Program-made: the position numbers and the translations under genes
Notes under the pieces: generated by a model
The model's input: the letters and a program-made list of their open reading frames with translations, nothing else
What the model was told of the DNA's origin: nothing
Database searches by the model: none
Shown: in pieces, positions 12,191 through 33,164 of the stretch
Numbering within the stretch: the stretch's first letter is position 1
Layout: each line of letters begins with the position of its first letter
Source of the DNA: Chlorobiota bacterium
Lineage (GTDB): Bacteria; Bacteroidota; Bacteroidia; Bacteroidales; B39-G9
Length of the DNA: 41,692 bases
Direction of reading: 5' to 3'
NCBI GenBank assembly: GCA_013152655.1
Contig: JAADFW010000273.1
Coordinates: 5,962 to 47,653, forward strand

Positions 12191-14500
12191 TTATTGTTTT
12201 CGTAATCGTAAAGCATTTGCAATTACCGAAACAGAGCTAAAGCTCATAGCTAAGGCTGCTAACATAGGGCTTAATAAGATTCCGAAAAACGGAAATAAAA
12301 GTCCTGCTGCAATAGGAACACCTAAAATGTTATAAACAAAAGCAAAAAACAGGTTTTGTTTAATATTGCGCATAACTTTTGTACTTATATCCCTGGCTCT
12401 CATAATTCCGTTAAGGTCTCCTTTTACCAAAGTAATTTCGGCACTTTGCATGGCAACATCTGTTCCGGTACCCATGGCAATGCCAATATTTGCCTGTGCC
12501 AATCCGGGAGCATCATTTATGCCGTCACCAGCCATTGCAACAATACTGCCTTTTTCCTGGTACTCTTTTACAGTTTTATATTTATCTTCAGGAAGGCAAT
12601 CGGCTTTAAAACCATCTAATTGTAATTCGTCTGCAACGGTTTTTGCCGTTCTGGCATTATCACCGGTAAGCATAATTACTTTTACACCCGATTTTTTCAG
12701 TTTTTTAACTGCAAGGGCTGTGCTTTCTTTAATAGGGTCAGCTATACTCACTACACCTTCAACCTTATTATCAACAGACAAATACATTACAGTTTGCCCG
12801 GTTTCCTGTAATCCTTCAACAAAAGATTTTACCGATTCGGGAATTTTAATATTAAATTCATCCATCAATTTTTGGTTGCCAATACCAACACGTTGATTAT
12901 CTATTAATCCTTTAACTCCTTTTCCTGTTACCGATTCAAAATCAGTAATGCTTCTCAGTTTTAGATTTTTCTTTTTTGCACCTTTTACAATAGCCATTGC
13001 AATAGGGTGTTCGCTATTAGAATCTAAGGCGGCAGCAATGCTGAGAATCTCATCTTCAGTATGTGTGCCAAACGATTTTATTGTTTTAAGCGATGGCTTG
13101 CCTTCTGTTAATGTTCCGGTTTTATCAACAATTAAAGTATCTACTTTATTCATTTCTTCCAAAGCACGTGCATCTTTAACCAAAACACCCGATTGAGCAC
13201 CTCTTCCCGTTCCAACCATTACAGACATAGGGGTTGCCAGGCCAAGTGCACACGGACAGGCAACAATTAATACTGCAACTGCATTTACAAAAGCGTAAAC
13301 ATACCGTGGTTCAGGCCCGTAAGCTGCCCATAAAATAAAGGTTAGGATAGAAACAAAAACAACAATAGGAACAAAATATTTTGAAACCGTATCGGCTAAT
13401 TTTTGGATTGGTGCCCGTGACCTTGAAGCCTGGTTAACCATTTCAATAATTTGCGACAACAAAGTATCTGAACCCACTTTTGTAGCTTCCATATCAAACG
13501 TTCCTGTACCATTTATTGTACCACCGGTAACCAAATCGCCTTCCGCTTTATCAACCGGTACAGGTTCGCCGGTAATCATGCTTTCGTCAACATGGCTGTT
13601 TCCATTAACGAGTTTCCCGTCAACGGGAATTTTTCCGCCTGGTTTAACCCTTAGTATATCACCTGTTTTAACCTCTTCTAATGGAATTTCCATTTCTTCG
13701 CCATTTCTAATAACAAGGGCTACAGGAGGTGTGAGGTTTAGCAGGGCTTTAATAGCAGAATTAGTACGGCTGTGTGCTCTTAATTCAAGTACCTGCCCCA
13801 AAAGTACTAACGAAAAAATAACAGTTGCTGCTTCGAAATATACATGAACATTACCTTCTAAATCTTTAAATTGTGCAGGGAATATATTTGGGAAAAGCAA
13901 TGCAAAAATACTGAATAAAAATGCTGCTCCTACACCAAGCGATATTAGTGTCCACATGTTTGGCGATAATCTTCGTACAGAGTTTACACCCCGCTTAAAA
14001 AATTCTCCACCTGCATAAAAAATAACAGGTATTGAAAGAACCAATTGAACCCAGTTCCAATTTCTCATATTCATTATATTTTTTAGAGGATTCCCCGGAA
14101 AAATATCTGCCATGGCAATAAAGAGAACAGGCAAAGTGAAAATTACTGCTATAATAAATCTCTTCAACATTTTTTTATAAGCAATAATCTCTTCATCCTC
14201 TTTGGGTTTTAACGGAATTAATGTCATTCCGCATTTAGGGCATTCACCCGGTTCATTTTTAATGACCTCGGGGTGCATTGCGCATGTATATTGCGATTTT
14301 TCACCAACTGGCTTTTCTTCAGAAACAGTATGATTATGTTCTGCATGATGGTGGTGAGAATGATCCATCATATTCATTTCGGATTTTTGAGTATTTAATT
14401 TTACTAAATCCATGTTGCAAACCGGACACTTCCCCGGTTTATCATAAGTTTTGTCACCCTCACATTTCATCTGACATTGATAGGTTTCATTTGTTTCCAT
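12191..14500 (-). CDS. P1B-type heavy-metal (copper) ATPase with two N-terminal HMBD-like domains and no HMA domain
   Basis: [37 protein letters not shown]-terminal [26 protein letters not shown] and [27 protein letters not shown]. Confidence 0.93.
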
Positions 14501-14584: not shown

Positions 14585-15640
14585 TTATTTTTTTTTATCC
14601 AGTAAATATTTCTTAGCACTTAACACAGCTTTTGCTCCTTCTCCGGAAGCAATAATTATGCGCTTTCCAAAAGCATTAGTAACATCGCCACAAGCAAATA
14701 TGCCCGGCTTATTTGTTGAACAATCGGGGTTTATGATTATTTCGCCTGCCCGGTTTAGGTTTACTAAATCTTTGCAATATTCGGTATTGGGCAAAAAGCC
14801 AACTTGTATAAAAACTCCTTTACATGGTAATTTTGTTGTAGCCATTGTATCTTCCGATTGAATTATCACACCTTCAACACTGTCTTCTCCATATATTTCG
14901 GTTATATTGTAGCCTTCGTAAATTTTTATGTTATTATACTTTTTAATTTTGTCAATATTCTTTTGATCGGCTATCATCTTACCTTTGGTTATTAATGAAA
15001 CATTACAGCCGGTTTTACTTAAGTCTTCTGCTGTTTGTGCTCCTGAGTTTCCTCCTCCAATTACCACTACATCCAATCCTTTAAACAAGCTAATATCCTG
15101 CACAGAACTATAAGAAACTCCTTTCCGAACCAATCTGTCTTCACCTGGAATTCCCATTTTCCTTTTCTTCATGCCTGTTGCAATGATTAAAGTTTGAGAT
15201 TCATATTTTTCCCGGTCTTTGGTAATAATTTCAAATTTATCACCTATCTGATTAATTTTTATCACTTCACCCATTTTGTGTTCTAAATAGTGTTCCTCAA
15301 GGAACTGGTCTCTGAATTTCTCAGCTAATTCTTTACCTGTAATAAATTCAAACCCCATATAGTTTTTCACTTTTGAACTGTCAATAGCCTGGCCGCCAAT
15401 GTCATTAGTAATTAAGAATGTATTTAACTTTGAAATAGAGGCATAAACCGCAGCCGTAAGCCCTGCCGGCCCGCCACCAATAATAATCAAATCGTAGGTG
15501 CTTTTTTTAGAATATTCAAGAGGTGAATCTTTGAACTTGTTCAAGCATCCGTTTGAACAGAAATAATATTTTTTGCTTTCAATTTCAATGGAATAATGTT
15601 CATGTTCTACATTCATTCCGCAAACGGGATCTTTATACAT
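14585..15640 (-). CDS. YHS domain fused to thioredoxin reductase-like FAD/NAD(P) oxidoreductase lacking CxxC
   Basis: MYKDPVCGMNVEHEHYSIEIESKKYYFCSNGCLNKF then GGGPAGLTAAVYAS, GGGNSGAQTAEDL, PGIFACGDV; GVSYSSVQDI at the usual CxxC position. Confidence 0.85.
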   Translation of the reverse strand: MYKDPVCGMNVEHEHYSIEIESKKYYFCSNGCLNKFKDSPLEYSKKSTYDLIIIGGGPAGLTAAVYASISKLNTFLITNDIGGQAIDSSKVKNYMGFEFITGKELAEKFRDQFLEEHYLEHKMGEVIKINQIGDKFEIITKDREKYESQTLIIATGMKKRKMGIPGEDRLVRKGVSYSSVQDISLFKGLDVVVIGGGNSGAQTAEDLSKTGCNVSLITKGKMIADQKNIDKIKKYNNIKIYEGYNITEIYGEDSVEGVIIQSEDTMATTKLPCKGVFIQVGFLPNTEYCKDLVNLNRAGEIIINPDCSTNKPGIFACGDVTNAFGKRIIIASGEGAKAVLSAKKYLLDKKK

Positions 15641-15894: not shown

Positions 15895-17232
15895 TTAATA
15901 TTCTACTTGAATTTTTTCAGGTACAGGACTATATTTTCTGATAATTACGCGGTCGCCCTTGTCGTAAGAAAAATAATTCCATAACCAGTTTATTGCAATA
16001 AGTAATTTGTTTCTGACACCAATTATGGTCATTAAATGAATAAACGACCAAATAAGCCATGCCAAAAAACCACTAAATTTCATGTTATTAATAACAGCAA
16101 CCGCTTTTTTCTTTCCGATGGTTGCCATTGAGCCTTTATCATGGTATTTAAAAGATGATGCAGGTTTGTCTTTAATTATTTTAATAAGATTTGTTGCTAA
16201 AGTTTTGCCTTGCTGAATAGCTGCTTGTGCTACCATTGGGTGCCCGTTTGGGTACTCTTTGGTTTTCATTACAGCCAAATCGCCAATTGCAAACACATTT
16301 GCAAGTGATTTAACCTTAGAATTTGAATCAACAATTATTCTGTTTTGCTTGTTAATGGCATCAGTTGGCAAACCACTAAAAGTTACACCCTGTACACCTG
16401 CTGTCCAAATGAAAGTAGCTGCATTTATTGTATTTCCGTTATCAAGCGTAATTTTTGTTCCATCGTACATTTTTGTGCGTGTATTTAGCAAAACATCCAC
16501 CTTCATTTCGGAGAGATAATTAATAGTTTTGTCTGATAGTTTAGTCGGCATTTGTTGTAACAGCCGGTTGTTTGCTTCAATTAAAAATATTTTCATTTCA
16601 ATATTTTTAAGCTCAGGATAATCTCTTGGCAATACATATTTCTTAAACTCGGCTAATGCACCTGCCATTTCAACACCTGCCGGGCCGCCTCCAATTATGG
16701 CAATGCTACTTAATATTTCTTTTTCTTCTTTTATGCAGGTTACGGCAGCTTTTTCTAAGTTTTGCAACAGTTCGCTTCTTATATCCAGCGAATCGGTAAC
16801 TGATTTTAAACCTTGTCCGAAATTTTTAAACCCATCATTTCCGAAGTAATTAGTAGTACTTCCACCAGCCAACACAAGATAGTCATAATACACATATCCT
16901 ATTGAAGTATTGAGCCGTTTGTTTTCTGAATCAATTCCGGTAACCTCAGCCATACGGAATACTACATTTTTAAAATTGTTGAATAATTTTCTGAATGGAA
17001 AAACAATGCTGTCAGGTTCAATACCGCTGGTTGCAACCTGGTAAAGCAAAGGCATAAACTGGTGAAAATTGTTTTTATCAATAAGCACAACCTGCACGGG
17101 CATATTCCTTAATTTTTTAACCAAATTTAAGCCTGCAAAACCGCCACCCACAATTATTATTCTGGGAAGTTTAGTTTCAGGAACACAAATATGTCCCTTT
17201 TCAAAGCAGTTTATTTTTTCGCAACATTGCAT
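15895..17232 (-). CDS. type II NADH dehydrogenase-like flavoprotein with Cys-rich N-terminal extension
   Basis: RIIIVGGGFAGLNLVKKL, MPLLYQVATSGIEPDSI, AAIQQGKTLATNL; N-terminus MQCCEKINCFEKGHIC. Confidence 0.88.
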   Translation of the reverse strand: MQCCEKINCFEKGHICVPETKLPRIIIVGGGFAGLNLVKKLRNMPVQVVLIDKNNFHQFMPLLYQVATSGIEPDSIVFPFRKLFNNFKNVVFRMAEVTGIDSENKRLNTSIGYVYYDYLVLAGGSTTNYFGNDGFKNFGQGLKSVTDSLDIRSELLQNLEKAAVTCIKEEKEILSSIAIIGGGPAGVEMAGALAEFKKYVLPRDYPELKNIEMKIFLIEANNRLLQQMPTKLSDKTINYLSEMKVDVLLNTRTKMYDGTKITLDNGNTINAATFIWTAGVQGVTFSGLPTDAINKQNRIIVDSNSKVKSLANVFAIGDLAVMKTKEYPNGHPMVAQAAIQQGKTLATNLIKIIKDKPASSFKYHDKGSMATIGKKKAVAVINNMKFSGFLAWLIWSFIHLMTIIGVRNKLLIAINWLWNYFSYDKGDRVIIRKYSPVPEKIQVEY

Positions 17233-17256: not shown

Positions 17257-17598
17257 TTATACGGCAAGAATGCCACTTTCGTCGGTTCTTACTTTATACA
17301 CTTCATCAACAGGCGATATAATAATCATTCCGTCGCCACGGTATCCGGTACGGCCGTTTTGTTTTATAGTGTCAATTATTTTCCGGATGTGTTCGTCAGC
17401 TACCAGTATTTCAAGTTTAATAACTCTGTATGCATTGGCAAACGGATATTTTTCGCTTATGTGGCCTTTTTCTTCATCGGTATAATGGCCGGTTCCTTCA
17501 CAATCTACAAACGTCATACAACAAAATCCTTCTTTTTTTAAGGCATTGTACACGTCTTCTATTTTACGATGCCGTATGTAAGCTTTTATTAGTTTCAT
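17257..17598 (-). CDS. PII family signal protein
   Basis: MKLIKAYIRHRKIEDVYNALKKEG ... GRTGYRGDGMIIISPVDEVYKVRT. Confidence 0.88.
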   Translation of the reverse strand: MKLIKAYIRHRKIEDVYNALKKEGFCCMTFVDCEGTGHYTDEEKGHISEKYPFANAYRVIKLEILVADEHIRKIIDTIKQNGRTGYRGDGMIIISPVDEVYKVRTDESGILAV

Positions 17599-32559: not shown

Positions 32560-32597
32560 TATTACAGGATTTTCAGAAAAAGTTACATTATTTACAC
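32560..32597 (-). promoter_or_regulatory. putative HMA-AraC operator D
   Basis: tattacaggattttcagaaaaagttacattatttacac; aligns to operators A-C; 50 bp upstream of the refined copA start and abutting the araC stop. Confidence 0.6.
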
Positions 32598-33164
32598 TTT
32601 ATCAAGCGATTTTCGTTTGTTCTTGCCTAATTGTTTGAAGTTTTTAGGTGTCATGCCTGTTATTTTTTTAAATTGGTTACTCAGGTGAGCAACGCTGCTA
32701 TAGCCTAATTTCCAGGCAATTTCGGAAAGGGTAAATTCATTATAAACAATAAGCTCTTTTGCTTTTTCTATTTTTTGCAGGATGATATAATGTTCAATCG
32801 TAATTCCCTCAACCGAAGAAAATAACTGGCTCAGGTATTTATATTCAAAATTTAATTCCTTACTGATTAATTCTGACCAAATTATATTTTTTTCACTTAA
32901 GTCATCATAATGAATTGTTTCAATAACAATATTTTTAACCGATTCAATTAACCGGCTTTTCCTGTCATCAATAAGTTCAAACCCGTTTTCTTGTAATACT
33001 TGTTGTAATGTTTCCAACTTTTTTTTATCAATTTCCCCAACTACGTCAACTTCGCCAAGCTTAATATTTTTGATTTTAATTTCCAACTTTTCCAGTTCCT
33101 CACTAACAACTTTAATGCATCGGGGACAAACCATATTTTTAATATGCAAAACGTTACTTTTCAT
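32592..33164 (-). CDS. AraC-family regulator with N-terminal HMA-like domain
   Basis: N-terminal VLHIKNMVCPRCIKVVSEELEKL; C-terminal FTLSEIAWKLGYSSVAHLSNQFKKITGMTPKNFKQL HTH. Confidence 0.92.
   Translation of the reverse strand: MKSNVLHIKNMVCPRCIKVVSEELEKLEIKIKNIKLGEVDVVGEIDKKKLETLQQVLQENGFELIDDRKSRLIESVKNIVIETIHYDDLSEKNIIWSELISKELNFEYKYLSQLFSSVEGITIEHYIILQKIEKAKELIVYNEFTLSEIAWKLGYSSVAHLSNQFKKITGMTPKNFKQLGKNKRKSLDKV

What the first reader, a model, noticed from the sequence alone, without database searches (positions are those of the whole stretch)
14585..15640. YHS-thioredoxin-reductase-like fusion that has lost the redox CxxC
The N-terminal ~45 aa is a YHS-type metal-binding module (DPVCGM...YYFCSNGC). 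The flavoprotein follows with both dinucleotide-binding motifs, but GVSYSSVQDI replaces the GVSYCATCDG-type active site. The protein cannot do canonical thioredoxin reduction through that disulfide. Within a copper island it may be an NAD(P)H-dependent metal reductase or sensor, with electrons delivered to YHS-bound metal.
Basis: partly seen in the sequence, partly recalled or inferred. Interest (0 to 1): 0.78.

Follow-up and report, generated by a model that had tools for sequence, protein, structure and literature searches.

The report
Copper-linked flavoprotein lacking redox cysteines
This gene encodes one member of a rare but evolutionarily stable enzyme family in which a copper-binding-type module is fused to a thioredoxin-reductase-like flavoprotein that has no redox cysteine pair, usually beside a copper-export pump, so it may use NADH to reduce or sense copper in the cell.

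Summary
Confirmed, with one correction: the gene is on the minus strand (15640->14585). P0001 (351 aa) has a YHS domain (residues 3-44) fused to a TrxR/AhpF-like flavoprotein (49-346), with YSSVQD where TrxR has YCxxCD.

It is not a decayed copy. I recovered about 26 relatives from Bacteroidota, Nitrospirota and a third phylum. Every fused copy that could be read across the site lacks the CxxC; all 51 un-fused relatives in the tree keep it. The fusions fall in one clade. All keep the three YHS cysteines, and the fourth ligand is Asp or Cys wherever covered. In clade I the old CxxC site became a conserved Y-[G/S/K]-x-[I/V]-[Q/H]-D motif. A copper P-type ATPase lies within about 8 kb in 18 of 22 clade-I loci, against 1 of 20 controls. 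The host genome has a normal CxxC TrxR elsewhere.

Best reading: an NADH-dependent flavoprotein that passes electrons from FADH- to copper held by the YHS site and so supplies Cu(I) to the exporter. That catalysis is inferred, not shown. A copper-gated reductase with another acceptor is nearly as likely. I found no description of the family in the papers searched. New variant of a known kind.

The parts
14585..15640 (-). YHS-flavoprotein fusion gene, 351 aa (P0001)
   Evidence: homologs
15509..15634 (-). YHS domain, residues 3-44; putative metal ligands D4, C7, C28, C32 (three Cys invariant in 25 aligned members; position 4 Asp or Cys in the 24 that cover it)
   Evidence: Pfam PF04945; ligand assignment by analogy to M. 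phlei AC D178/C181/C204/C208 (PMC4626032)
14669..15496 (-). TrxR/AhpF-like FAD/NAD(P)H flavoprotein region (Pyr_redox_2, residues 49-324)
15092..15109 (-). site of the missing CxxC, residues 178-183 (SSVQDI): positions 178 and 181 align with the two cysteines, Asp182 retained
12191..14500 (-). copper P1B-type ATPase with HMBD metal-binding repeats, next gene downstream, 84-nt gap
   Evidence: TIGR01511 605.9 bits, HMBD PF19335; conserved neighbour
15895..17232 (-). NDH-2-type NADH dehydrogenase, next gene upstream; also directly upstream in L109
   Evidence: PF22366 NDH2_C
17257..17598 (-). PII-like protein, upstream; recurs in L093, L094, L108
   Evidence: PF00543
5817..6170 (-). small lipoprotein-like YHS protein, the only other YHS domain found in this genome

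Best explanation
A probably cytosolic flavoenzyme of the TrxR/AhpF fold that dispenses with the disulfide relay. SHOWN by sequence: a fused YHS module with an intact Asp/Cys + 3 Cys ligand set; both dinucleotide-binding motifs; no CxxC; a conserved replacement motif in clade I; one clade; and strong linkage of clade I to copper ATPases. INFERRED: NADH (no HRRxxxR-type NADPH motif) reduces FAD. With no cysteine pair next to the flavin, FADH- passes electrons directly to an acceptor, most likely Cu(II), or oxidised copper-thiolate, held or delivered by the YHS domain, giving Cu(I), the form handled by the neighbouring P1B ATPase and Cus pumps. The YHS domain thus stands where AhpF carries its thioredoxin-like N-terminal domain.
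For: Every fused member readable across the site lacks CxxC while all 51 un-fused relatives keep it; the fusions form one clade (100/99). D/C4 (24 of 24 covered) and C7/C28/C32 (25 of 25) are kept. Clade I conserves Y-[GSK]-x-[IV]-[QH]-D at the site. A Cu ATPase lies within about 8 kb in 18/22 clade-I loci against 1/20 controls (Fisher p 3e-7), in 17 of the 18 downstream on the same strand, in several overlapping or within 70-230 nt. Multicopper oxidase, CusABC and CsoR-like genes recur nearby. YHS is a demonstrated copper-responsive module with the same ligand pattern (PMC4626032). CxxC-less TrxR-fold enzymes that transfer electrons directly from flavin are known (FNRs, PMC10294844). The only two YHS domains found in this genome are in this island. 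A normal TrxR is present elsewhere.
Against: No activity, metal binding or flavin binding was tested. Clade II (5 proteins from the phylum of L004, labelled Myxococcota by the tree tool) has YHS and no CxxC but no copper ATPase within the flanks available, so copper export is not universal. Several hosts are probably anaerobic (Thermodesulfovibrio relatives, own knowledge), where copper is already mostly Cu(I). The structure model (mean pLDDT 78.7, pTM 0.66, residues 83-106 below 50) does not fix the YHS position relative to FAD. NADH preference rests on absence of a motif only.
Confidence: 0.38

Rival explanations
1. Copper-gated reductase (sensor/switch): copper binding to YHS changes conformation and turns on or off NADH-dependent electron transfer to another acceptor (quinone, ferredoxin-like carrier, O2 or a partner), as YHS gates cyclase activity in M. 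phlei.
For: Direct precedent for a fused YHS domain regulating a neighbouring enzyme domain through an 8-residue linker (PMC4626032); the linker here is also short (about 4-8 residues between Pfam boundaries); copper context.
Against: No candidate acceptor gene is consistently linked; NDH-2 is adjacent in only two loci.
Confidence: 0.27
2. Intramolecular thiol relay as in AhpF: FADH- reduces a YHS disulfide (C28-C32 or C7) or a copper-thiolate, and YHS then reduces a partner protein thiol.
For: The closest solved relatives by sequence are AhpF C-terminal domains, which pass electrons to an N-terminal redox domain; the three YHS cysteines are invariant.
Against: AhpF itself uses the flavin-adjacent CxxC that is missing here; YHS Cys have precedent as metal ligands rather than redox disulfides; no peroxiredoxin was recognised in the flanking gene lists inspected.
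Confidence: 0.14
3. [quoted passage not shown]
For: TrxR-fold FNRs lacking CxxC are an established class (PMC10294844); several linked ATPases carry their own YHS.
Against: The family profile scores AhpF/TrxR structures (230-240 bits) far above FNRs (about 145 bits); the host has a separate FNR-like protein on a long distinct branch.
Confidence: 0.12
4. Decayed thioredoxin reductase or annotation artefact.
For: One split, frameshifted copy exists (L092).
Against: Intact ORFs at 40-66% identity across phyla with strongly conserved replacement motif and ligands.
Confidence: 0.02

Closest known systems
Alkyl hydroperoxide reductase subunit F (AhpF), C-terminal TrxR domain
   Same: Best PDB sequence match (4o5q/1fl2/1hyu, E about 1e-55 to 1e-54); an additional N-terminal domain on a TrxR-like flavoprotein; similar LFKG and MxADQ-type regions
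   Different: AhpF has CxxC in the flavoprotein and a thioredoxin-like N-terminal domain; here neither, with a YHS metal site instead
Low-Mr bacterial thioredoxin reductase (TrxB, TIGR01292)
   Same: Fold and dinucleotide motifs; 264 bits over the whole model
   Different: Below the equivalog cut-off (343), no CxxC, extra YHS
[quoted passage not shown]
   Same: TrxR fold without CxxC
   Different: Lower-scoring group (about 145 bits against 230-240); in the solved ones the match covers only the flavoprotein part, no YHS
YHS-domain adenylyl cyclase of Mycobacterium phlei (PMC4626032)
   Same: Fused YHS with D-x2-C-x20-22-C-x3-C ligand pattern; copper link
   Different: Effector is a class III cyclase, not a flavoenzyme; YHS is C-terminal
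Bacterial cupric reductases: CcoG (Fe-S), E. coli NDH-2 activity
   Same: Proposed reaction: reductant to Cu(II) giving Cu(I)
   Different: CcoG is a membrane Fe-S protein; the NDH-2 activity is considered quinol-mediated and unspecific (PMC7558416)

Membership tests
Thioredoxin-disulfide reductase (TIGR01292) | CxxC(D) redox pair next to FAD | tested here: not met
   S178/Q181 in place of Cys; absent in all fused relatives readable at the site
Thioredoxin-disulfide reductase (TIGR01292) | score above equivalog cut-off 343 bits | tested here: not met
   264.2 bits
Thioredoxin-disulfide reductase (TIGR01292) | FAD and NAD(P)H GxGxxG/A motifs, TrxR fold | tested here: met
AhpF | N-terminal thioredoxin-like domain plus score above 502.9 bits | tested here: not met
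   262.8 bits, only residues 43-347 match, to positions 207-513; YHS at the N terminus
TrxR-like FNR | no CxxC | tested here: met
TrxR-like FNR | FNR-group sequence and C-terminal FAD-stacking residue | tested here: inconclusive
   FNR structures score about 100 bits lower than TrxR/AhpF; stacking residue not examined in a dimer model; root position unresolved
YHS domain (PF04945) | profile score above gathering cut-off | tested here: met
   43.9 against 30.3 bits
YHS domain (PF04945) | Asp/Cys + three Cys metal ligands | tested here: met
   D4, C7, C28, C32; Cys invariant in 25 rows, position 4 D or C in 24 of 24 covered
Cupric reductase (functional class) | NAD(P)H-dependent Cu(II) reduction | not testable with these tools
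   needs purified protein

The most novel reading that the evidence does not exclude
A previously undescribed family of soluble, NADH-dependent copper reductases in which a YHS copper site takes the place of the thioredoxin-reductase disulfide as the immediate electron acceptor of the flavin, feeding Cu(I) to P1B exporters.
Probability: 0.33. Interest if true: 0.8.

Novelty: new variant of a known kind. Interest (0 to 1): 0.57.

Why it matters
Bacterial copper exporters handle Cu(I), but a 2020 review names only CcoG as a specific bacterial cupric reductase (PMC7558416). A conserved flavoprotein with a fused copper-type module, encoded beside copper ATPases, is a concrete candidate for a cytosolic one, and a test case for how the TrxR fold works without its disulfide. 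If it is a switch instead, it would be a further case of YHS acting as a copper sensor on an enzyme.

Tried and rejected
Decayed-copy hypothesis: rejected. Chance motif: rejected. Plasmid search with the protein: 811 records match, all below 60% identity; the 20 best places listed cover only the flavoprotein part (query start residue 33 or later; ahpF, trxB and similar), so none of the rows shown is a YHS fusion; the other 791 were not inspected. NDH-2 with a Cys-rich N terminus as a partner Cu reductase: the Cys are not conserved in the L109 copy and adjacency holds in only two loci. L102 P-type ATPase was excluded from the copper count because it scores as Ca-type. Rooting loss against never-present CxxC: the tree with two remote extra rows gave long-branch artefacts; with one FNR row the fusions stay one clade (97/78) but the direction stays open. 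Structure model: adequate for the fold (TrxR best hits), not for the YHS-FAD distance; no coordinates were available to me. Promoter/terminator scan was at chance level. Literature searches for YHS with thioredoxin reductase, FAD-dependent enzymes or TRASH found no description of the fusion; only open-licence papers are held.

Full report
OBSERVATION. The ORF 14585-15640 is real and lies on the minus strand. It encodes 351 aa: a YHS domain (PF04945, residues 3-44, 43.9 bits) joined by a few residues to a flavoprotein of the thioredoxin-reductase fold (Pyr_redox_2, residues 49-324). The best sequence matches of known structure are AhpF and TrxR. At the site aligned with YCxxCDG of AhpF/TrxR it reads YSSVQDI: both cysteines are absent and the Asp is kept. 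It scores 264 bits against TIGR01292 (cut-off 343) and 263 against AhpF (cut-off 503), so it should not be named either.

FAMILY. Searching species genomes and the order, class and phylum of the host, Nitrospirota and the phylum of L004 gave 25 YHS-fused proteins that could be aligned (24 loci plus the window; A2), plus partial copies in one MAG (L007, L092). None of those readable at the site has CxxC, while the 51 un-fused TrxR/AhpF-type relatives in the tree keep it. In clade I (20 of the 25 aligned rows) the site is a conserved Y-[G/S/K]-x-[I/V]-[Q/H]-D (one row has S for Y); in clade II (5 rows from the phylum of L004) it is of an EFHAL type. In A2 the YHS cysteines C7, C28 and C32 are invariant; position 4 is Asp, or Cys in two rows, and one row does not reach it. 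In the tree of the flavoprotein part all fusions fall in one clade (100/99), kept at 97/78 with an FNR outgroup row. The property is therefore stable and under selection, not decay; whether CxxC was lost or absent from the start is not settled. The family is rare: 1 of 395 genomes sampled in the class, 5 of 394 in the order, 9 of 198 with a full-length match in Nitrospirota, 1 of 299 in the host phylum, the host itself counted each time in its own groups.

CONTEXT. In the window the gene sits in a copper island: Cu P1B ATPase with HMBD repeats directly downstream, DUF302, HMBD proteins, CusCBA-type efflux, a second Cu ATPase and an HMA-AraC regulator. Across clade I, 18 of 22 loci have a Cu ATPase within about 8 kb, 17 of them downstream on the same strand, in several cases overlapping or nearly so; among 20 loci around CxxC relatives one full ATPase was seen (Fisher p 3e-7). 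Caveats: relatives are not independent, contigs differ in length, and one ATPase (L102) was dropped as Ca-type. PII-like, multicopper oxidase, CsoR-like and NDH-2 genes recur less often. Clade II shows no copper ATPase in its flanks. The host has only two YHS domains, both in this island, and a normal CxxC TrxR elsewhere.

PLASMIDS. tblastn against the plasmid collection found 811 records, all below 60% identity; the 20 best places shown align only the flavoprotein part, mostly ahpF or trxB, so no fusion is visible among those rows. The remaining 791 were not inspected.

MECHANISM. Shown: architecture, ligand conservation, missing CxxC, copper linkage. Inferred: NADH -> FAD -> acceptor without a thiol relay. 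The most economical acceptor is copper held at the YHS site, because YHS is a copper-responsive module with the same ligand pattern in M. phlei adenylyl cyclase (PMC4626032), TrxR-fold enzymes without CxxC do pass electrons directly from flavin (PMC10294844), and the neighbouring ATPases belong to a class that exports Cu(I). The same precedent also supports a copper switch on another reaction, so confidence is about 0.38 against 0.27. The AlphaFold model and its fold search support the TrxR fold but not the YHS-FAD geometry.

NOVELTY. The papers found do not describe the fusion. Components are known; the combination, its constant CxxC absence and its copper linkage appear new. Filed as a new variant of a known kind.

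Noticed in passing
window 17257-17598 (-): PII-like protein (PF00543) in the copper island that recurs near the YHS flavoprotein in L093, L094 and L108; resembles the reported PII-NG association with metal efflux (PMC7726332).
   Followed up: partly
window 15895-17232 (-) and L109 6569-7942: NDH-2-type NADH dehydrogenase directly upstream of the YHS flavoprotein in both; the window copy has a Cys-rich N terminus (MQCCEKINCFEKGHIC).
   Followed up: partly
window 32592-33164 (-) and L109 9070-9651: HMA-like N terminus fused to an AraC-type HTH; in L109 a similar protein lies directly downstream of the YHS flavoprotein.
   Followed up: partly
L001 2021-3460: Transposase-like ORF (IS66 type by eye) inserted between the YHS flavoprotein and its Cu ATPase.
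   Followed up: no
L092 1707-2803: Second copy of the YHS flavoprotein in MAG G456 split into two overlapping frames, next to a YHS-bearing Cu ATPase and a CsoR-like gene.
   Followed up: partly
L064-L068: Clade II YHS flavoproteins with an EFHAL-type stretch in place of CxxC, no copper ATPase in the flanks; function and context unexplained.
   Followed up: partly
L003, L007, L092, L098, L099: Linked Cu ATPases that themselves carry YHS domains by pattern match.
   Followed up: partly
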